DNA of 64,000 nt from Onthophagus taurus. Its lineage: Eukaryota > Arthropoda > Insecta > Coleoptera > Scarabaeidae. The stretch is taken from the NCBI RefSeq assembly GCF_036711975.1, contig NC_091976.1:10478001-10542000 (forward strand), written 5' to 3'. Position 1 is the stretch's first letter, and each line of letters starts with the position of its first letter. The notes under the pieces are model-generated. The model was not told the DNA's origin. It worked only from the letters and a program-made list of their open reading frames with translations, and did no database searches. This document shows positions 2,721-45,985 of the stretch, one piece after another. The position numbers and the translations under genes were made by a program.

Positions 2721-4952
2721 GTGGTGCACCCGGGGTTACAACGCGAGATTGTCATTCGTGTTCGGGAAAAGGGGCAGCGGGTCGACGATAGATCGGTGTC
2801 GTACCCGTCCCACCTTTCAAAAGCCGATCGGAGTTTTGTTAGATTACGTTTTCGCGTCTGCACGGGACGACGAAAGACCCTATTTATACGTGAATATTTT
2901 GGGGAGACGAATCGCGGGATTGTTGGACTCGCTACTAAAACGATCGCGGGTCGAGAGGGGATACTAATATTGAAAAACTTAGGCATACCTATAACGAGAG
3001 TTAATTCGCAATGTACTGTCGCGAATAATGACCGATGTCAAATTGAAGGTATGATGACCGTACCGATGGTTGTTGAGGGTCGCGTAAGACTCATCGAAAT
3101 TTTGCTGGTACCGACTTTACGACATGCGTTAATTTTGGGAGTAGATTTTTGGAGACGTATGGGTGTGGTACCTGATTTACGTAGGGGGGATTGGTCCTTT
3201 TCATGTGAACCTCCGGATGTCACGGTATCGGCCATACAAGCGCGTGAAAGTTTGTCGGTAGAAGATAAGCATCGGGTACCGGAACTTCTTCAACGGATTT
3301 TTGAACCTAAACATAAAAGTCAGTTAGGTCATACTCATTTAGTATCTCATAAAATTCGGGTTAACGAAAACGTACTTCCGATTAAGCAAAGGTACTACCC
3401 GGTCTCGCCGGCTATACAAAAGATCATCGATCGAGTACTCGATGAAATGATCGCGATGGGCATTGTCGAAAAATCCAGTAGCCCGTGGTCTTCGCCAATT
3501 TTAATGATCCCTAAAAAGGACGGTGGATATCGATTCTGTGTCGATTACAGACAGCTGAATCGTGTGACTTTGTCTGCTTACCTGTTGCCGAATATTTCGT
3601 GGACTCTAGATAGTTTACGGGACGCGAGATATCTGTCGTCCATCGACATTAAATCGGCATACTGGCAAATTCCGATGGATGAGGCCAGCAAGCCGTACAC
3701 AGCTTTCACGGTTCCGGGACGCGGGCTGTTTCACTTTAATCGGATGCCGTTTGGCTTAACTAACGCACCGGCCACGTGGCAGCGTTTTATCGATGGTGTT
3801 ATTGGGGGAGATTTGGCTCCTCACGTTTTCGTCTACCTTGACGATATCGTCGTGGCGACTCCGACCATCGAAAAACATTTTCAGATCCTCGAGCAGGTCT
3901 GTAGTCGGTTGGTAGCGGCAGGCTTGACCCTAAATAAAGAAAAATGTAATTTTTTTCGTGAGTCATTAAGGTATTTGGGATATATCGTGGACGGTGACGG
4001 ATTACACGTGGACTCGGAGAAGGTTAGAGCGATTTTGGAAATACCTACGCCGAAAAAGGTGTCGGAGGTGCGGCGTGTGGTCGGTATGGCGTCATGGTAC
4101 CGGCGATTCGTACCTAATTTTGCGACCGTGGTCTCTCCTCTGACGGCGTTATTAAGGAAGTCGTGTTGTAAGTTCTTGTGGACCGATGAGTGCGAGCGAG
4201 CGTGGAGCACGATTAACGAAAAGTTGGTGACGGCACCGATTTTAACCAGGCCGAACTTCGAACATAAATTTACTATTCAGACGGACGCGTCGGATTACGG
4301 CGTCGGGGCGGTGCTGACGCAGGTGATTGACGGAGCGGAACACGTAATAAGCTACTTGAGCCGATCGTTAACCGCGCAGGAACGGAAATACGGGACTACA
4401 GAGAAGGAGTGTTTGGCGGTTTTGTGGGCGATAGAAAAATTGCGGCCCTATGTGGAAGGAAGCCATTTCACCGTGGTGACCGACCACTATTCTCTGGTCT
4501 GGCTTAACAATTTGAAATCACCTTCTGGTCGTTTGGCGCGATGGTCCATACGATTACAACAGTATGATTTTTCTATTAAACATCGTAAGGGTAAGGAGCA
4601 TGTAGTGCCCGATGCTCTTTCGCGAGCTGTACCGGTGCTGGCGGACGAAGTGTCGGTTGATCGCGTATCGGATCCGTGGTGTCAAAGGTTGGTACAGGCC
4701 GTCAAAGCAAATCCCGATAGATATCCTTCGTATCGGACGGATGGGGACAGGTTGCTTAAAAAGATTCGAGTGACGGATTATCGTTTGACGGACGGGGATA
4801 TGTGGAAAATCGTGGTTCCTCGAGGCGAAAGGGAAAAATTAATTAAAAGGCTCCACGACTCACCTGAGGCAGGGGGTCATTTAGGAGTAGAAAAGACCGT
4901 GTCCAAAATCCTTCACCATTATTACTTATTACTGGCCCAAATATCGTGCTGA
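2721..4952 (+). CDS. pol: gypsy-A pol: damaged protease, reverse transcriptase, RNase H
   Basis: The 743-codon frame carries reverse transcriptase from about residue 235 (SSSPWSSPILMIPKKDG, FCVDYRQLNRV, then the catalytic YLDDIV near 371) and RNase H (TDASDYGVGAVL near 520, TEKECLAVLWAI, TDHYSLVWL). It copies element RNA into DNA. The protease is broken: RPYLYVNILGRRIAGLLDS lies in another frame (2851-2938) and the Asp-Ser-Gly active site is lost at a small indel near 2938. The frame ends early at a short duplication near 4925, just after HLGVEKT of the integrase zinc finger. The first ATG is arbitrary; gag-pol would be read through a frameshift. Confidence 0.9.
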   Translation: MVHPGLQREIVIRVREKGQRVDDRSVSYPSHLSKADRSFVRLRFRVCTGRRKTLFIREYFGETNRGIVGLATKTIAGREGILILKNLGIPITRVNSQCTVANNDRCQIEGMMTVPMVVEGRVRLIEILLVPTLRHALILGVDFWRRMGVVPDLRRGDWSFSCEPPDVTVSAIQARESLSVEDKHRVPELLQRIFEPKHKSQLGHTHLVSHKIRVNENVLPIKQRYYPVSPAIQKIIDRVLDEMIAMGIVEKSSSPWSSPILMIPKKDGGYRFCVDYRQLNRVTLSAYLLPNISWTLDSLRDARYLSSIDIKSAYWQIPMDEASKPYTAFTVPGRGLFHFNRMPFGLTNAPATWQRFIDGVIGGDLAPHVFVYLDDIVVATPTIEKHFQILEQVCSRLVAAGLTLNKEKCNFFRESLRYLGYIVDGDGLHVDSEKVRAILEIPTPKKVSEVRRVVGMASWYRRFVPNFATVVSPLTALLRKSCCKFLWTDECERAWSTINEKLVTAPILTRPNFEHKFTIQTDASDYGVGAVLTQVIDGAEHVISYLSRSLTAQERKYGTTEKECLAVLWAIEKLRPYVEGSHFTVVTDHYSLVWLNNLKSPSGRLARWSIRLQQYDFSIKHRKGKEHVVPDALSRAVPVLADEVSVDRVSDPWCQRLVQAVKANPDRYPSYRTDGDRLLKKIRVTDYRLTDGDMWKIVVPRGEREKLIKRLHDSPEAGGHLGVEKTVSKILHHYYLLLAQISC

Positions 4953-5988
4953 CGTCGTTCGTTATGTTAAAGCGTGCAAGGTGTGCCAACGCACTAAACC
5001 TGAGCAAAGAGCTCCTGCGGGGTTGCTGAGAAGTCATAACGGTATAATACGTCCGTGGCAAGTTATAAGTATAGACATAATCGGACCATTACCTAGAAGT
5101 TCCAAGGGTTATACTCACATACTAGTTGTACTAGACTTGTTTAGTAAATATCCGGTGTGCTTTCCGCTGCGTAAAGCAACAGCTTCCGCTGTGGTACGTA
5201 ACCTCGAAGAAGGTATTCTTTTGACCTACGGTGTGCCGCAGATTATAATTAGTGACAACGGTGTCCAATTTCGGTCGAAATTGTATGAACGTTTACTTCA
5301 AGACTATAATATTAAAGCTAAATTTACTCCGTTTTACCACCCTCAGTCTAATCCGACTGAAAGAGTAAACCGAACGTTGAAGACTATGTTAACCGCTTAC
5401 GTTAGTGACAATCAACGGTTATGGGATTTATACTTACCCAAGGTCACGTGCGCGTTGCGAACTGCCAAAGATACGACTACCGGTTATTCCCCGTATTACA
5501 TCCTTCACGGGCGGGAAATCATTTTGGATGGAGCACTGCATAAAATCGATGAAATACACGAAAAAATTAATACGAAACTTAGGGCAAAAGCATTTAAGAA
5601 TCTGTTCGCGGAGGTACACGCAAGGATTAAAATGGCTTCGACGCGATCTGGTCTTAATTATAATCTCCGAAGACGCGAGACTAGCTTTAATGACGGTGAT
5701 CTGGTTTGGCGAAAGAACTTTGTTTTGTCGGACGCGAATAAAGGTATAGCGGCCAAAATGTCAGATCGGTACATAGGTCCTTTTCGGGTGCGTAAAAAAA
5801 TAGCGGATGACATTTACGAGTTAGAGAAACTTACCGGTGAATTACTGATTGGTCGTTGGCACGTGACACATCTGAAGCCATATTCGGGCAGGTCGGAAAC
5901 GGAACAGGGCGATGACGACGCGGAGGTTTCATCGCAAATACTGTATGATCGTTTTCTCTTCTATATCTTTTTTTTTTATCTGAGCTAA
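4920..5988 (+). CDS. gypsy-A integrase
   Basis: The frame resumes after a ~7-bp duplication at about 4925 and completes the HHCC zinc finger (CKVCQRTK) and the catalytic core: SIDIIGPL (Asp), IISDNGVQF (Asp) and NPTERVNRTLK (Glu). The C-terminal DNA-binding part includes DRYIGPFRVRKKI and HLKPYSG. No chromodomain is visible. The triad is present, but the upstream frameshift separates this region from reverse transcriptase. Confidence 0.88.
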
Positions 5989-27904: not shown

Positions 27905-28021
27905 CACCAGTGTGAATTAATTGAAAATTGACCGGACCGCGACCGACCCGTGACTTGATCGACCCGTGACTTAACCGGCCCGTGACTTGACCGGTCGTTG
28001 ATCGATAGTGTGAATAGGCCT
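27905..28021 (-). repeat. Harbinger-2 right terminus
   Basis: Complement of the left end, with repeated CCGTGACTTGACCGG-type iterations (three or four) before GATCGATAGTGTGAATAGGCC. Confidence 0.85.
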
Positions 28022-28800
28022 TTAGTTGTTAGAGGTTTAATGAAATCGTCAATCGGCAACTCAATATCTCAACCGTACAAGAGAAAATAAGGCGTATAGC
28101 CTGTGCTACGGTGATAAGAAGAGCAATAAGCAAGAACAACAAAAGGCAACCACTCATCCCAATCCCTTTGAATTTTGAAAATATAGTGCGATAGTATGTC
28201 TTTAATTACACGGTGACTTCGTTCGATCAATCCGTTACATTCCGGGTGATAACGGGTAGTTTGAATTTTTTCAATTTTTAGCAACCTACACGTTTCCTTC
28301 ATTAAATTTGAAACAAAATTACTAGATTGATCCGTCAATAATTGTTTAGGCGTTCCATGACGATAAACTATTTTAGTCACGAAAGCTTAGGCAACTGTTT
28401 CAGCCTTCTGATCTGGCAAAGGTATAGCTTCGATGTACTTCGTAAAGTGATCTTGAAATGTCAAAATATATCGATTCCCGTTATCTGTAGTGACCAAAGG
28501 TCCAACGATATCCATCGATGTACGTTCGAACGGACGATTTATTGCTTGGAATTTTTGTAGCGGTACCCTCTGTAAGTGCGCTGGAGTTTTTCGTCGATTA
28601 CATAACTCGCAATTGTTACAATAATTCTTTATATCGCGGCTCATGTTAGGCCAATAAAATCCATCATACATTACTGCCATCGTTTTTGCCTGACCACTAT
28701 GGCCAGCATACGGTAAGTCATGATAATCTCGAATTGCCCGTTTAACAAAAGAATTTTGGTAAAACCAGTAAATCACGATTGTTATACATTTTATAATATA
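28022..28800 (-). CDS. gypsy-C integrase
   Basis: Two frames (28776-28387 and 28380-28069) are one integrase interrupted by a single stop (ETVA*AF). It has the HHCC finger (YHDLPYAGHSGQAKTM, CNNCELCNRRK) and the D-D-E core: SMDIVGPL, LLTDQSSNFVSN and NGLIERSHRVI. The tail ends DDFIKPLTT at the Harbinger-2 border. The upstream codons (DLLVLPK at about 28775) continue the polyprotein from the macrodomain region at 40326, beyond two insertions. Confidence 0.88.
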
Positions 28801-34254: not shown

Positions 34255-36704
34255 ACGTATTTAACTTCAGACGTGCTAATTTCTCTGACATTGATTCGTA
34301 TCTGTCTACTATTAACTGGGATACAGAGCTAAATACTCGTGAAGTAGACCCTGCTGCTGATTTCTTTTATTACCATTTAAATTTTGCCATTCAAAAATTT
34401 ACTCCGATCAAGCGCAAATTCACTAGTGGTTTTCCGATGTGGTTTTCGCGAGATACTATCAGAGTGATCAGAGAAAAGCGAAGGGCTCATGTTAAGTGGA
34501 AACGGTATGGAAAACAAATAGATTATTTGACTTTTTCATTATTGCGAGGGCGTTCTAAGTTTCTCATTCGGCGCGACTATGGGAGGTATGTTGGTGGCGT
34601 CGAGAGCAGTATTAAAAAGCTAATCCTAAATACTTTTGGTCTTATATTAAAAACAAGAAAGGTGCGGATACAATTCCTACACCTATGACATTAAATGGGG
34701 CTGTTGCCGGGGACGGTAAGGGTGTCTGCTCGCTATTTGCAACATATTTCTCTTCGGTGTATGTCCCTCCCTCTGTTAATCCTGTTAATTCAATTAATTC
34801 ACTTCATTCTGCTAATGCTGACCTTAATGATACTACATGTTTGGGTCCGATGCGCTTTGAGCGGTCTGAGGTTGAGGAAGCTCTTATTGCTTTAAACATA
34901 AATAAGGGTCCGGGCACTGATGGTATTCCTCCTATCCTAATAAAATCATGTTTTGAATCTCTTTCTCTACCACTTTCCATCTTATTTAACAAATCTGTAA
35001 AGGAAGGTACGTTTCCTGCCTTTTGGAAACGTGCATATATTTTGCCCATTTTCAAATCCGGTAGTCGTAACCTGTCAGTGTTCGGTAAGGTTTTAGAAAG
35101 ACTGGTTTATACCAGACTCTTCTTTAGGCTTAAATCCAAAATCGATCCTAGACAACATGGCTTTTTTGCGAATCGGTCAGTGGAGAGCAACCTGCTTGAG
35201 TACACAAATTATATTTCAACATCATTTGACCAATATTGTCAAGTTGATTCTGTTTACACCGATTTTAGCAAGGCTTTTGATCGTGTGGATCACAGCCTTC
35301 TTTTATCAAAACTTCATGGTTATGGTGTTCATGGTGGGTTGCTCCGCTGGTTTGATTCATATTTGCGAGGTAGGAGCCAGATTGTATCTGTTAACGGATA
35401 TTGCTCTGACCCTATATCAGTTCCCTCGGGTGTCCCTCAGGGTAGCCACCTCGGACCCTTGCTATTTAATCTTTATGTTAACGATATTTTCAAGGTTGTG
35501 AAACATTGTCAATGTCTAATGTACGCAGATGATCTCAAGCTTTATCTGCGTATCTCCTCTCCGTTGGACTGCTCTAGACTGCAGACTGACCTTCTCAGGA
35601 TTTCTGACTTTTGTACTAAAAATCACTTGACCCTAAATCTGTCTAAATGTAATGTTATTTCTTTTTCGAGAAGGAAGAATACTGTTCATTACGATTACAA
35701 CATCGCTGGCGTAAACTTAACACGCGTTTCCTTTATTAGAGACCTTGGAGTGACTCTTGATCCCAAGCTTCTCTACGCACAGCACATTGACACTACTGTT
35801 AATAAGGCTTGGCGTATGCTCGGTTTCATTATGAGATCCACCTCTTCCTTTGTAAGCGTTGACGCGATTAAAAATTTATATTTCGCATATGTTTACAGTA
35901 TTCTTAATTTTTGCACTGTAGTTTGGAATCCCCAATACCTTATTTATATTGACCGAATTGAAAAAATTCAATCTAGATTTTTGAAATATCTAAACTTTAA
36001 ATCTTCCATACCTTATATTAATTATCATTCGTCTTGCAGATCTTTTCGGTTAATGCCCCTTCGACAACGTCGCCTGTGTAACGACACATTATTCTTCTAC
36101 AAGGTTTTACACAATATGTGTGATTCCACAGTTCTTTTGAATTCGGTCAATATTCATGTACCTCCCCGTCTTCTTCGCTTTAATTTCTTGTTCTGTACGC
36201 CTATTCCTCGCACCAATGCTTTTCGAAACTCCCCTATGTTGCGAATGGCTCGTCAGGCTGATAAGCTCGATATTGATTTGTTTCAGCATTCATTTTCTAC
36301 GTTTAGGCGCATACTTTTTAATGCAGTCAGCGAATTGCCTCCTTCGTTTTGGTAGCTCGTTGGTTTCTGTTTTTGTATAATGTTTAATTTCGCCGTTACT
36401 ATTGCTATTAGGCATTGTTTTATTTTATTTTACTTTTTGGCTTTATTGTATTATTATTATTGTTTTATTTTGTTTTATCTTTTTTTTTGTATATATATAA
36501 TATCTGAATTCCGGTGTTTTTAGTTTAAGTTTAATTTTATTTTTAATTGCTCGCCTTAATTTTGATAATTTTGATTTTTTCTTTATTCATTTTTCCTTGG
36601 TACACGTTTTCTTTTTTTTATTGTAAATTTTTTTCGTGGTACAGATCATTTGGGTTTGTCCTGTTTCTGTACCCATAAATTATAAATAAATAAATAAATA
36701 AATT
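34255..36704 (+). mobile_element. LINE-1 copy of a Jockey/CR1-like family
   Basis: 5'-truncated non-LTR element starting NFRRANFSDIDSYLS and ending in a 3' UTR with an (AAATA)n tail at 36682-36704. It separates the two parts of the Jockey-like ORF1. No clear target duplication. Confidence 0.85.
34437..36355 (+). CDS. Non-LTR reverse transcriptase (LINE-1 ORF2, partial)
   Basis: Two frames (34437-34688, 34685-36355) are one ORF with a frameshift near 34680. Reverse transcriptase motifs are INKGPGTDGIPPILIKSCFE, FKSGSRNLSVFGKVLERL (a few conserved residues before LSVFGK are deleted), FTDFSKAFDRVDH-type YTDFSKAFDRVDHSLLLSKL, PQGSHLGPLLFNLYVNDI and the catalytic LMYADDLKLY. The endonuclease N-terminus is absent. 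It primes reverse transcription at nicked DNA. Related to LINE-2 at 44878-45826. Confidence 0.9.
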
Positions 36705-38320: not shown

Positions 38321-38824
38321 GTCGGAGTCATATTAAAACAAAAAAAAATCAGGAGTCGGAGTCGAAGCAAAAAAAAAAATTAGGAGTCGGATGTGGAGTC
38401 GGAGTCGCTGTATTTTTGCGACGACTCCACACCCCTGCTCGGGATAGCGCAAATTGGAACACATTTGATGCGTGAGAAGGTCTCGTTCGAGATGCTTAAG
38501 TGGTTAAAATATTTTATTCAATTAGCTATATTTTAAATTGATTTGTTCGTTTATTTTTCACTAACATAAGTTGTAACTTTTATGGGTTCTATGGTTAAAT
38601 ATTGTAAATTGAACTTAAAAAATTTTTAATTAAGGAAAAGTATAATTTTTACATAAAAATTGGAATAATTAGTTAACTGCTATAGTTAGAATATAAAGTT
38701 CGTGCGATTTGGTGGTTTGACCATATCCGACGCATTATTTATGCTGAGATAAGTTTGAAAAATCGGTAATACATTTCTTTTCCTCTTTGTAACTCGATCC
38801 GGGGACATATTGTATAATACATTA

Positions 38825-40325
38825 TGTAATAACTTAATAAGTGTTCTTCTCTATTAAGTATTGGGAAGATTGGTAAAGGTGATCAATTAATAATTAAAGA
38901 CTGTATCGTTGTCTTAACTTCTATATGACTTCTTTGTAACTATATCTTTTACAATTAATTACACTATACTTATACTAGACTTACTGCTAACGTAGCAGAA
39001 CAAACCTTGTTACGTTTGTCGTACTAACCTTATTAAATAACCTTATTACTCCTAACCTACTTAATATTAATAGCAACATTACTAGTAGTCATACCTTACA
39101 CCTTCCCCGCTAAATAAAAAACAATTGTTTTGTATATATAATAATAATTTTTTTTTCTTCTTTCTATTTTCAAAATTAACTGTAGAGTCCTCAAATTGGA
39201 CTATCTTTCACCATATTCTTTGTCCTATTCTTTTAATAGCGATGCGCGCATCACTTTTAATTATAAATCATTCTTGATTATTTAATTTTCTACATTTTCC
39301 TTCTACATAAGTTAAAAAGGTCTGTCAACGACGAATTTATTGCTGACGCTGATCCAGAATCCAATTTTTGTAGAACTTCTTTATTTTCATTATACATATA
39401 ATATATCATTATCTTCTCAATTATTATTTTTTTTAAGGCCTCTAACTCTGTTCCAATCATTAAAGATTATTTACTGGCATATTTCGCGTTTTTAATCAAT
39501 TCACCACACCAGGGTGATCAAGCCTTTAGTGGAGTATTGGATCAAATTCCTTGGTATCATTTTTCCGTTTTGTTTTGATGATAATGATGATTGAGGTAGT
39601 CGGTACGATTTAACGTAAATAGATATTGTTGATATTTGTAAATGAATTGCTTCTTTGTAAACATTTGTCACCGTGAGCGTGTAGGTTTTCAAATGAAACA
39701 CATCAGCATATTTTCAAGAACTCTTTGTAGTATTTTCTGTTAATATTTTTTTTATATCTTTATCCAGTCAGGAATTGTATAGTTTGATGATGTTGATGGT
39801 GAATGTGGTAGCGGTGCAGGGCTTAGTCATGTTATTTTAGGTGAAAAATATCGTGCAATTGACATTCTTCGTGTTTTCGTTTCTTTTCTTTTTCTTCTTT
39901 ATATTTTTTTTTTACTTTTTTTATATTTCTTCTATTCTTCATATTTCTTTTTCTTTTTTATATTTCTTTTTCTTCTTCATATTTCTTTTTCTTCTGTCTT
40001 CTTAGATGTTAATTGAGTCGCGCAGGCAATCGCGCTGGCAGGATCGCCATGTAATAACTTAATAAGTGTTCTTCTCTATTAAGTATTGGGAAGATTGGTA
40101 AAGGTGATCAATTAATAATGAAAGACTGTATCGTTGTCTTAACTTCTATTTGACTTCTTTGTAACTATATCTTTTACAATTAATTACACTCTACTTATAC
40201 TAGACTTACTGCTAACGTAGCACAACAAACCTTGTTATGTTTGTCGTACTAACCTTATTAAATAACCTTATTACTCCTAACCTACTTAATATTATTAGTA
40301 ACATTACTATTAGTCATACCTTACA
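38825..40325 (-). mobile_element. Small non-autonomous LTR element (TRIM-like, 1.5 kb)
   Basis: Two 276-bp direct repeats (38825-39100, 40050-40325; about eight differences) bracket ~950 bp without a credible gene. On the minus strand a purine tract (GCGGGGAAGG) precedes the 3' LTR and TGGCGATCCTGCCAG follows the 5' LTR as a primer-binding site. Internal pyrimidine-rich TTTCTT runs. It interrupts gypsy-C just after the macrodomain. Confidence 0.88.
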
Positions 40326-40990
40326 ATTCTCTTCATCCACATAATAATTAAAATTTTCTATCTCTCCGGAATTTTGATTTTCGATTGTTTTTAAAATTTC
40401 GGCACAAAAAGCGTCTTTTCTCTGTACATCCGCTATCACTGCTTTATCCCAAACTGGAAGAAATTTATCTTTATTCTTGTCGTTTACCATTGCAACTTGT
40501 TGATTCGTAGGTTCATCCCAAACATAAACTATAATCTGAATATTTGTATCGCTAAATACATTTCTAATTTCTTGTCGTACTAGTTTCCAATCCGATTTAT
40601 CCAGACCACAGCCAAGTCTTGGTATTGCCAAAAATTCGTCGTTTCTATTCAGCATTTTTGCCTTCAAATCTTCTAAACATTTTCGTAAGAAGTTGTAAGT
40701 AGGTTTATGATAATACTCGTTTTTGGTTACCAGATAATAAATAGATCGATTTCCGGATTCAGTTACCGCTACTTCGCCCACTGATTTATTTTGTCCTTTT
40801 AATACGTCTACCCGTCCAAAATTTTGTCTAAAAGTTTTTGCTATTCCCTGAGACATACGAAGATCTTGAGATACACAATGAGCCAATGCATATTTCGGGG
40901 ATGCTGTAAATAAATCCCCCTTCCTTTCCTCTAATTTAAATTTCGATTCTAATTTGACAAGTATTACATGGATCCTACTCAGAGCATCGA
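40326..40990 (-). CDS. TARG1/OARD1-like macrodomain inside gypsy-C polyprotein
   Basis: Frame order is RNase H end (NVDALSRIHVILVKLESKF), KGDLFTASPKYALAHCVSQD, LRMSQGIAKTFRQNFG, GEVAVTESGNRSIYYLVTK, HKPTYNFLRKCLEDLK, IPRLGCGLDKSDW and IQIIVYVW. This is a full macrodomain of the TARG1/OARD1 (ALC1-like) class, which binds ADP-ribose and removes it from acidic residues; the family's catalytic Lys (here in LVTK) and Asp (GCGLD) are both present. It is followed in frame by VIADVQRKDAFCAEILKTIE, the usual linker to integrase, and YYVDEEN, where the TRIM-like element inserted. The frame is open for about 210 codons. The function within the element is unknown. Confidence 0.88.
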
Positions 40991-41122
40991 CATTTCAGTG
41001 TTTCTTTCCGGGACGATGTACTATATCGAAATCGTATTCAGCCAACGTAAAAGCCCATCGAACTAACCTCGAGCTCGGATCCTTTATCGTCAATAAACAA
41101 CGCAATGGACGATGATCAGTAC
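40985..41122 (-). pseudogene. gypsy-C RNase H, C-terminal part
   Basis: Reads STDHRPLRCLLTIKDPSSRL, VRWAFTLAEYDFDIVHRPGK and, after one TGA, NVDALSR. It is the end of a Ty3/gypsy RNase H and connection, in the same frame as the macrodomain. The first half is at 42778-42964, beyond a solo LTR. Confidence 0.88.
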
Positions 41123-42774: not shown

Positions 42775-43215
42775 GTAAATTTACGACCATACAAATAACA
42801 TTAATTCCGTATACAACCGCCAAACACTCCTTTTTCCTAGTACTATAATTATTCAGTTCTGCATTTTTCAACCCTCGACTAGCAAAAGCTATAGGAGTCT
42901 CAAAACCGTTCTTAACTTGACTCAATATTGCCCCCAAACCTCGATCGGACACATCAGTCGTCAAAATAAAGGGTTGAGAGAAATCAGGATGCGTTAATAC
43001 ACAATCCTCGGTAATTGCATTTTTAATGCCATAATAGCCTTTATTTCGCTTTCCCCTGTCGAAAAATATACATCCCTTCGCGTTAACCTCGTAAGTGGAG
43101 CCGCCAATTTAGAAAAATTATTTATGAATTTCCGATACCCCCCAACCAAATCAAGAAAAGCTCGAAAATCTCTTTCGTATTTTTAGGAATCGGGTAATTT
43201 TGAACAAAATTTAAC
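42775..43215 (-). pseudogene. gypsy-C reverse transcriptase thumb and RNase H start
   Basis: Right to left: YPIPKNTKEI, then after a shift FRAFLDLVGGYRKFINNFSK and LAAPLTRLTRRDVYFSTGES, a deletion/shift near 43030, and FILTTDVSDRGLGAILSQVK, KKECLAVVYGI of RNase H. YLYGRKFT follows in another frame before the solo LTR. The catalytic reverse transcriptase part lies upstream and is missing. Confidence 0.82.
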
Positions 43216-44885: not shown

Positions 44886-45985
44886 CTATAGTAATTTCTG
44901 GCATGCCTCAGGGCAGTCACCTGGGACCACTACTATTTTAAATATATGTTAATGATATATTCTCTTGTATAACCAATTCACGCTGTTTAATGTATGCTGA
45001 TGATTTAAAAATTTTCTTGCCGGTTCGGACCACAGATGATTGTGTGAAGTTGCAGACTGACCTTGACAGGTTTGACCAGTTCTGTGTTAGAAATCACCTT
45101 ATTCTAAATATTGCCAAATGCCATACTATTTCATTTACTAAAAAACGCGATTACATCAAATATAACTATTGTATTGGTAAGGAAGGCCTGCGTCGAGTGA
45201 CGCATACCGTCGATCTTGGTGTAACACTCGACCAGAAGCTGATATTTGACAGACATGTTGACGGAGTGGTAATAAAATGTTACAGAATGTTAGGCTTTAT
45301 AAAACGATCTACCGAGCATTTCACAAACTCAAGTGCAATTATAAGCATGTATACTGCTTATATTGGCAGTGTCTTAAACTTTGGAAGCATTGTCTGGAAT
45401 CCACAATATGCGGTTTACATCGAACGGTTAGAAAAAGTTCAAAAATGCTCAATTAAATATCTTTGCTACAAAACCAGACGTGAATATGTGGATTATCCCG
45501 CAAGCTGTGAGATGTTCGGATTTCTGACTCTCCGTCAACGACGAGCATATCATGACGTACATTTTCTGTTCAGGCTTGTCAGTGGTCTTTCTGATTCACC
45601 GTCTTTACTGGCTAGGATCGACTTTCATGTTAACCCGCGTCAACTGCGATATGACTTTTTATTTTACGCACCTATGCCGCGAACAAATGCTTATCGGAAT
45701 TCCCCTATTCTCAGAATGGAGCGTACCTCTGATCTCATTAATTGCGATTTATTCGCGTATAATCCAGCTAATGTTAAGCGCAACATCAGAACCGCAATTA
45801 TATCTTTACCTGCCGTATCGCTATGATTGTAATGCCTTAATGCTCTGTCCTTAAGCTTGTTTTAGAAATTAAGATTTTTTTTAGTTGTACTTTATAAATA
45901 TATGTTGTGGAACAACTTTATTGGGTTCGTCCCGTTGGTATTCTCTTGTTCAAATAAATAAATACAAATAAAATAAAATAAACAT
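44878..45985 (+). mobile_element. LINE-2, 5'-truncated in reverse transcriptase
   Basis: Begins at GYSSHPSIVISGMPQGSHLG and ends in a (AAATA)n-type tail at 45950-45985. Same family group as LINE-1 (34255-36704). Confidence 0.85.
44990..45826 (+). CDS. Non-LTR reverse transcriptase C-terminal part (LINE-2)
   Basis: 278 open codons begin at the catalytic motif (MYADDLKIFLPVRTTDDCVK) and continue DLGVTLDQKLIFDRHVDGVV, SIVWNPQYAVYIERLEKVQK and FLTLRQRRAYHDVHFLFRLV to PRTNAYRNSPILRM. The PQGSHLG motif lies upstream, separated by one stop (LLF*IYVNDIFS). Non-functional alone. Confidence 0.88.
   Translation: MYADDLKIFLPVRTTDDCVKLQTDLDRFDQFCVRNHLILNIAKCHTISFTKKRDYIKYNYCIGKEGLRRVTHTVDLGVTLDQKLIFDRHVDGVVIKCYRMLGFIKRSTEHFTNSSAIISMYTAYIGSVLNFGSIVWNPQYAVYIERLEKVQKCSIKYLCYKTRREYVDYPASCEMFGFLTLRQRRAYHDVHFLFRLVSGLSDSPSLLARIDFHVNPRQLRYDFLFYAPMPRTNAYRNSPILRMERTSDLINCDLFAYNPANVKRNIRTAIISLPAVSL

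What the first reader, a model, noticed from the sequence alone, without database searches (positions are those of the whole stretch)
40326..41122. Ty3/gypsy element with an ADP-ribosyl-hydrolase-type macrodomain between RNase H and integrase
Seen: one minus-strand frame runs from the RNase H end (DFDIVHRPGK, NVDALSR) straight into a complete TARG1/OARD1-like macrodomain (KGDLFTASPK, GCGLDKSDW, IQIIVYVW) and then into the usual linker and, past later insertions, the integrase (28069-28800). Known: TARG1-class macrodomains remove ADP-ribose from acidic residues with a Lys and an Asp, both seemingly present. Inferred: the element captured a host macrodomain as a polyprotein module, perhaps to counter PARP-type signalling at DNA breaks or antiviral ADP-ribosylation, or to affect integration. 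I am not aware of this being a standard gypsy module.
Basis: partly seen in the sequence, partly recalled or inferred. Interest (0 to 1): 0.88.

Follow-up and report, generated by a model that had tools for sequence, protein, structure and literature searches.

The report
Retroelement carrying an ADP-ribose-removing domain
Several families of virus-like jumping elements in this animal genome carry, inside their replication polyprotein, a domain closely resembling the cell's enzyme TARG1 that removes ADP-ribose marks, which suggests they may defend their own proteins or DNA against that marking system.

The parts
43054..43173 (-). fragment of the reverse transcriptase of the fossil gypsy element
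   Evidence: tblastn of the L009 RT piece, residues 182-221, 60% identity, E 1.8e-11
42800..43051 (-). first part of RNase H of the same element
   Evidence: tblastn of the L009 RH piece, residues 2-84, 72.6% identity
40998..41123 (-). RNase H C-terminal part; a TGA stop follows at 40997-40995
   Evidence: Pfam RT_RNaseH E 4.1e-5, just under its cut-off; 87.8% to L009 over residues 99-139
40926..40994 (-). end of RNase H (NVDALSR) and short linker running in frame into the macrodomain
   Evidence: open frame
40521..40925 (-). TARG1/OARD1-type macrodomain
40722..40724 (-). codon of the lysine equivalent to TARG1 Lys84
   Evidence: model residue 72, offset 12 to chain 4j5q (ranges); column check
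40599..40601 (-). codon of the aspartate equivalent to TARG1 residue 125
   Evidence: model residue 113, offset 12 (ranges); column check
40326..40520 (-). pol linker between macrodomain and integrase zinc finger
   Evidence: aligned to L009 through residue 222 of its piece
40049..40325 (-). first LTR of a small nested LTR element that cuts the pol frame
   Evidence: direct repeat D1, 97%
38824..39100 (-). second LTR of the nested element
   Evidence: direct repeat D1
28021..28776 (-). integrase of the same fossil element, continuing pol at the next residue
   Evidence: tblastn of the L009 IN piece, residues 1-260, 76.9% identity, E 2e-137

Best explanation
The locus is a dead copy of a Ty3/gypsy element family whose pol polyprotein includes a TARG1-like macrodomain between RNase H and integrase. 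Shown by sequence: the module, its recurrence in several element families, its two alternative positions, retention of the TARG1 catalytic pair in all 17 fetched long-frame copies, and decay in related families. Inferred: the domain is made with RT and integrase, cut out or left attached by the element protease, and carried in the particle. There it hydrolyses mono-ADP-ribose from acidic residues of element or host proteins and/or from terminal phosphates of element RNA or cDNA, both of which human TARG1 does in vitro. That would keep cDNA ends and the integrase complex usable when host PARPs respond to foreign or broken nucleic acid. In lineages with lost catalytic residues the fold persists as a spacer or ADP-ribose reader.
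Against: No activity, expression or packaging data. The macrodomain changes about twice as fast as RT (dN A-B 0.53 versus 0.23, dS saturated). A versus broken copy L042 gives dN/dS 0.45 (NG86) or 0.78 (YN00), no clear constraint. Within-family variable codons are not depleted of amino-acid changes (macro nonsynonymous:synonymous A 7:3, B 3:1, C 3:2), though numbers are tiny and integrase looks alike. Related families do without the catalytic residues, so catalysis is dispensable for gypsy replication in general. The genome has few PARPs (5 matches), and insects are said to lack most vertebrate PARPs (passage of PMC10221186).
Confidence: 0.5

Rival explanations
1. The domain is an ADP-ribose reader, not an eraser: it tethers the pol complex to PAR/MAR-marked chromatin or DNA breaks and so helps to choose or reach integration sites.
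For: It lies between RNase H and integrase in A, B and the window family. Degenerate versions persist at the same place in open frames, e.g. L046 and L068. TARG1 accumulates at damaged DNA depending on PAR (passage of PMC8053099).
Against: Recently active families keep the catalytic pair exactly. Family C has the domain between protease and RT, away from integrase. Several decayed versions have lost the GCGLD loop.
Confidence: 0.2
2. The domain is a passenger that became a structural spacer of pol: once captured it supports folding or processing, and ADP-ribose chemistry is irrelevant.
For: Linkers of 150-218 residues persist in 14 of 15 families or copies without a canonical domain whose linker was read at both ends. 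Six degenerate linkers match the canonical domains by profile (E 1.3e-18).
Against: Lys/Asp are kept in 17 of 17 long-frame copies although only about 45-50% of macrodomain residues are shared between families A, B and C. One linker (L084) is only 21 residues by my motif search and family C has 79, so a long spacer is not required.
Confidence: 0.2
3. A host OARD1 retrocopy inserted by chance into one gypsy copy; the association is local.
For: The window copy is broken, with insertions on both sides.
Against: The same RH-macro-IN order occurs in dozens of copies and several families. The window integrase continues at the very next residue. The host-like OARD1 gene (C1:43969010-43969473, with an intron) does not group with the window copy.
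Confidence: 0.01
4. Origin only, not exclusive of the above: the macrodomain came from an insect virus rather than from the host, as the chuvirus-type glycoprotein did.
For: TARG1-like macrodomains occur in other insect-associated viruses: a Kadipiro virus VP8 model is 49% identical to the window domain. Families A and C carry a Monjiviricetes fusion protein.
Against: Human TARG1 is about as similar (46%). No tree with viral sequences could be made.
Confidence: 0.25

Closest known systems
TARG1/OARD1 (C6orf130), ALC1-like macrodomain hydrolase
   Different: a stand-alone cellular protein; here a module inside a retroelement polyprotein
Ty3/gypsy (Metaviridae) pol, PR-RT-RNaseH-IN
   Same: these domains in that order
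   Different: extra macrodomain between RNase H and IN, or between PR and RT
Macro-domain ORFs of fish epsilon-like endogenous retroviruses (Basta et al. 2009, as cited in a passage of PMC4977317; the original was not read)
   Same: a reverse-transcribing element carrying a macro domain
   Different: described there as additional open reading frames in Retroviridae relatives, not a module inside gypsy pol
Viral macrodomains of alphaviruses and other RNA viruses
   Same: macrodomain in a viral polyprotein; recurrent loss of catalysis is reported for alphaviruses (passages of PMC10221186)
   Different: 11-14% identity to the alphavirus rows of the structural alignment; here the TARG1-type Lys/Asp pair
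TARG1-like domains in insect-associated RNA viruses (Kadipiro virus VP8; Frankliniella flavi-like virus 1)
   Same: close sequence and fold (49% and 38% identity)
   Different: RNA viruses, not reverse-transcribing
Anakin (BEL-Pao element with chuvirus glycoprotein)
   Same: chuvirus-type glycoprotein gene on an LTR element (passages of PMC7642597)
   Different: BEL-Pao, not gypsy. PMC10084718 found no clear gypsy capture (passage); families A and C here show it in gypsy

Membership tests
Ty3/gypsy (Metaviridae) | pol order PR-RT-RNaseH-IN with H2C2 and rve | tested here: met
   for families A, B, C (one copy each); window pieces
Ty3/gypsy (Metaviridae) | LTR pair flanking the coding region | tested here: met
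   7 B copies and 2 A copies show terminal direct repeats, cut by the fetched ends; not seen for the window copy, nor for C, whose elements run past the fetched stretch
Ty3/gypsy (Metaviridae) | target-site duplication | not tested
TARG1/OARD1 macrodomain hydrolases | macro fold closest to TARG1 | tested here: met
   predicted model
TARG1/OARD1 macrodomain hydrolases | catalytic Lys84 and Asp125 | tested here: met
   window and 17 of 17 long-frame copies; residues named in PMC7050489 (which writes Glu125; the human chain has Asp)
TARG1/OARD1 macrodomain hydrolases | removal of mono-ADP-ribose from acidic residues or nucleic-acid phosphates | not testable with these tools
   needs an enzyme assay
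Errantivirus (env-bearing gypsy) | env gene downstream of pol | tested here: met
   third ORF of L009 and L024, Monjiviricetes_fusion E 3.4e-141 and 1.7e-148; B only remnants; window copy not seen
Errantivirus (env-bearing gypsy) | env of baculovirus F-protein type (origin as stated in a passage of PMC12440569) | tested here: not met
   the ORF matches the chuvirus-type fusion protein instead, so not filed as Errantivirus
Degenerate macrodomain in RH-IN linkers (type i) | profile similarity to canonical macrodomains | tested here: met
   hhalign prob 99.1, E 1.3e-18 over 137 columns, 6 linkers
Degenerate macrodomain in RH-IN linkers (type ii) | profile or fold similarity to macrodomains | tested here: inconclusive

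The most novel reading that the evidence does not exclude
The long linker between RNase H and integrase in most of this clade of gypsy elements is a decayed TARG1-type macrodomain. The ancestral element carried an active ADP-ribosyl hydrolase. Families A, B, D and the window family still have it; type-i families keep a dead one; type-ii families keep a macro fold without its two-helix stretch. If so, ADP-ribose chemistry was once a basic part of the replication of these endogenous-retrovirus-like elements.
Probability: 0.3. Interest if true: 0.88.

Novelty: new variant of a known kind. Interest (0 to 1): 0.77.

Why it matters
Macrodomains are known as weapons of RNA viruses against host ADP-ribosylation, chiefly in vertebrates with many antiviral PARPs. 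Finding TARG1-type domains built into the pol of several gypsy families, at least one of them recently mobile, in an animal with few PARPs, points to an unrecognised contest over ADP-ribosylation in reverse-transcribing elements; the substrate may be nucleic-acid ends. The question becomes directly testable with small recombinant domains, and nature supplies active-type and inactive-type versions at two positions in pol.

Tried and rejected
Chance match or local insertion: rejected. A protein-database search was not possible. The viral contig collection gave no relative (16 pattern matches, none confirmed). Target-site duplication of the nested LTR element: by eye the flanking bases do not match, so its insertion is not shown to be clean. 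On the RT tree, holding the RNase H-side rows together is rejected (p-AU 0.008) and holding the PR-side rows together is not (0.45) (the groups were named after a first tree had been seen). The first would be expected if type-ii linkers are decayed members, but it equally fits repeated gain. Element macrodomains as one clade apart from host and human OARD1: not rejected (p-AU 0.36); long branches make the root unsafe. Rows left out: RT rows L027, L049, L059 for internal stops, near-duplicates L011, L013, L016, L026, and further L012, L057, L065; the macrodomain tree leaves out frameshifted or partial copies. Within-family codon counts were too few; dS was saturated, zero or undefined in most pairs. 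Foldseek on the type-ii linker gave nothing significant. PF20886 hit 2 of 11 type-ii linkers, best E 0.00049, not pursued. Literature: ten searches, seen as listings with starts of abstracts; macrodomain + errantivirus gave 0 papers, macro domain + gypsy + retrotransposon 1 (the fish paper), macrodomain + retrotransposon + LTR 10, none on this by title. The word macro was not found in PMC12440569 (whole word), PMC12992720, PMC13172572. Most subscription papers and preprints are outside the library.

Full report

The window copy is a fossil. RNase H is split (43051-42800 and 41123-40998), the stop lies in its tail, and after 40326 a small LTR element (LTRs 97% alike) and further DNA intervene before the integrase at 28776-28021. 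Against sister copy L009 the macro piece ends at 40326 and the integrase piece begins at 28776 with the very next residue, so the original order was RNase H - macro - integrase without a gap.

Recurrence in the genome. The window's own genome (290.8 Mb, 33 contigs) has 80 matches to the window protein and 86 to the family C domain at E 0.01. Of those 86, 36 lie in uninterrupted frames of 1,241-1,692 codons of families A (5), B (21) and C (10); 3 more such frames (1,312-1,421 codons) hold degenerate versions, and one 1,692-codon B frame has a stop inside the match (counted by hand). Pfam on pieces gives PR, RT, RNase H, Macro, H2C2, rve for A (L009; Macro there E 0.0012, below its cut-off, but TARG1-like by tblastn E 1.4e-39) and for B (L015; Macro E 6.5e-5, over cut-off). 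For C it gives PR, a macrodomain, RT, RNase H, IN (L024; Pfam Macro only E 0.0033, below cut-off, but TARG1 E 2.6e-39). The RNase H-IN linker is 79 residues in C, 240-241 in A and B. So the same kind of domain sits at two places in pol.

Which elements have it. An RT search with family A returned 150 scored matches out of 1,432 candidates. Pairing these with the macrodomains on the same strand within 3.5 kb: at least 90% RT identity 7 of 7, 70-75% 23 of 23 (all downstream of RT), 56-65% 14 of 15 (3 downstream, 11 upstream; the exception lies in a 237-codon frame), 50-55% 2 of 40, under 50% 5 of 65. These are sequence-level detections; the 33 macrodomain pieces without a scored RT nearby include the window copy, whose RT is broken.

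Catalytic residues. All 17 fetched copies of A, B and C with frames of at least 1,241 codons (L009-L013; L014-L019 and L021; L022-L026) keep both residues. Of 30 element copies of canonical type with both positions readable, 28 keep both; the exceptions are L027 and L036, both in shortened or frameshifted copies (counted by hand; host-like gene and degenerate types left out, re-fetched copies counted once; L034 has Ser at the Lys place with the Asp place unreadable; L031, L040, L044 readable only in part). Degenerate types vary: Q/G, K/G, G/D, K/H, N/H, R/L, T/K, gap/N; L046 and L041 have K and D in an altered loop. The column assignment is approximate for these.

Trees. On the RT tree A, B and D form a clade (99/98). 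Type-i and type-ii rows intermingle; the RH-side rows alone are rejected as a clade (p-AU 0.008), the PR-side rows are not (0.45). On the macrodomain tree the window domain groups with A and B (98/97); the host-like OARD1 gene, human OARD1, C and D are unresolved. Number and source of captures are open.

Age and selection. Terminal repeats of family B (cut by the fetched ends) are 98.3-100% identical over 436-534 bp in 7 copies, so B moved recently; 2 A copies show 99.3 and 100% over 287-295 bp. A versus window macrodomain: NG86 dN 0.31, dS 1.73. A versus the broken copy L042: 0.037/0.083 by NG86 but 0.043/0.055 by YN00. A versus B: dN 0.53 for macro, 0.23 RT, 0.17 RNase H, dS saturated. The domain seems constrained but evolves faster than the polymerase. 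Within-family variable codons do not show constraint.

Neighbouring gene. A and C carry a third ORF matching the Monjiviricetes fusion protein (L009 552 aa, profile positions 126-651 of 653, E 3.4e-141; L024, cut by the fetched end, E 1.7e-148). B retains only remnants. Chuvirus-type glycoproteins are known on BEL-Pao Anakin elements (passages of PMC7642597), glycoproteins of the Mono-Chu clade are common in ant genomes (passages of PMC6540820), and clear gypsy capture was reported as not found (passage of PMC10084718). Families A and C look like clear gypsy cases.

How it may work. Human TARG1 removes mono-ADP-ribose from acidic residues and from terminal phosphates of DNA and RNA (passages of PMC8053099). 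A pol-encoded version would be present in particles beside RT and integrase, where cDNA ends and pol proteins are exposed. The genome has five PARP-domain matches over cut-off (searched exon by exon, so this need not be five genes). I favour an eraser protecting the replication complex (about one half), with reader and spacer roles as rivals; decayed lineages show that catalysis is not indispensable.

Novelty. Ten literature searches, seen as listings, listed no macrodomain in gypsy pol. Fish epsilon-like endogenous retroviruses with macro-domain ORFs are mentioned in PMC4977317 citing Basta et al. 2009 (passage; original not read). Kadipiro virus VP8 carries a TARG1-like domain 49% identical to the window's. 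I therefore call it a new variant of a known kind.

Noticed in passing
window 38824-40325 (-): A short LTR element (about 1.5 kb, LTR pair 97% identical, PBS-like TGGCGATCC after the first LTR and a purine tract before the second) with no listed ORF of 80 codons or more inside, at the 3' side of the macrodomain; probably non-autonomous.
   Followed up: partly
L009:7690-9345, L024:8480-10000: Gypsy elements with a nearly complete chuvirus-type fusion glycoprotein ORF, in contrast to the published statement that gypsy capture was not clear.
   Followed up: partly
window 34685-36355 (+) and 44990-45826 (+): Long ORFs that look like non-LTR reverse transcriptases (seen in the ORF list, not searched).
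   Followed up: no
window 3252-5883 (+) and 23932-20310 (-): Other, distantly related gypsy fragments whose RNase H-integrase spacing leaves no room for a macrodomain.
   Followed up: partly
G000 C1:43969010-43969473 and C3:27701151-27701473: Two places that look like the host OARD1 gene and a duplicate; the C1 copy has a short GT-AG intron (seen), and at C3 the match is split near the same place.
   Followed up: partly
L084 (C6:27875900-27876760): A related gypsy copy whose RNase H-integrase linker is only 21 residues by motif search, unlike the 14 others read.
   Followed up: no
BFVD entry A0A8E0KJF2: Kadipiro virus VP8 carries a TARG1-like macrodomain 49% identical to the window's, hinting at repeated viral use of this domain in insects.
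   Followed up: no
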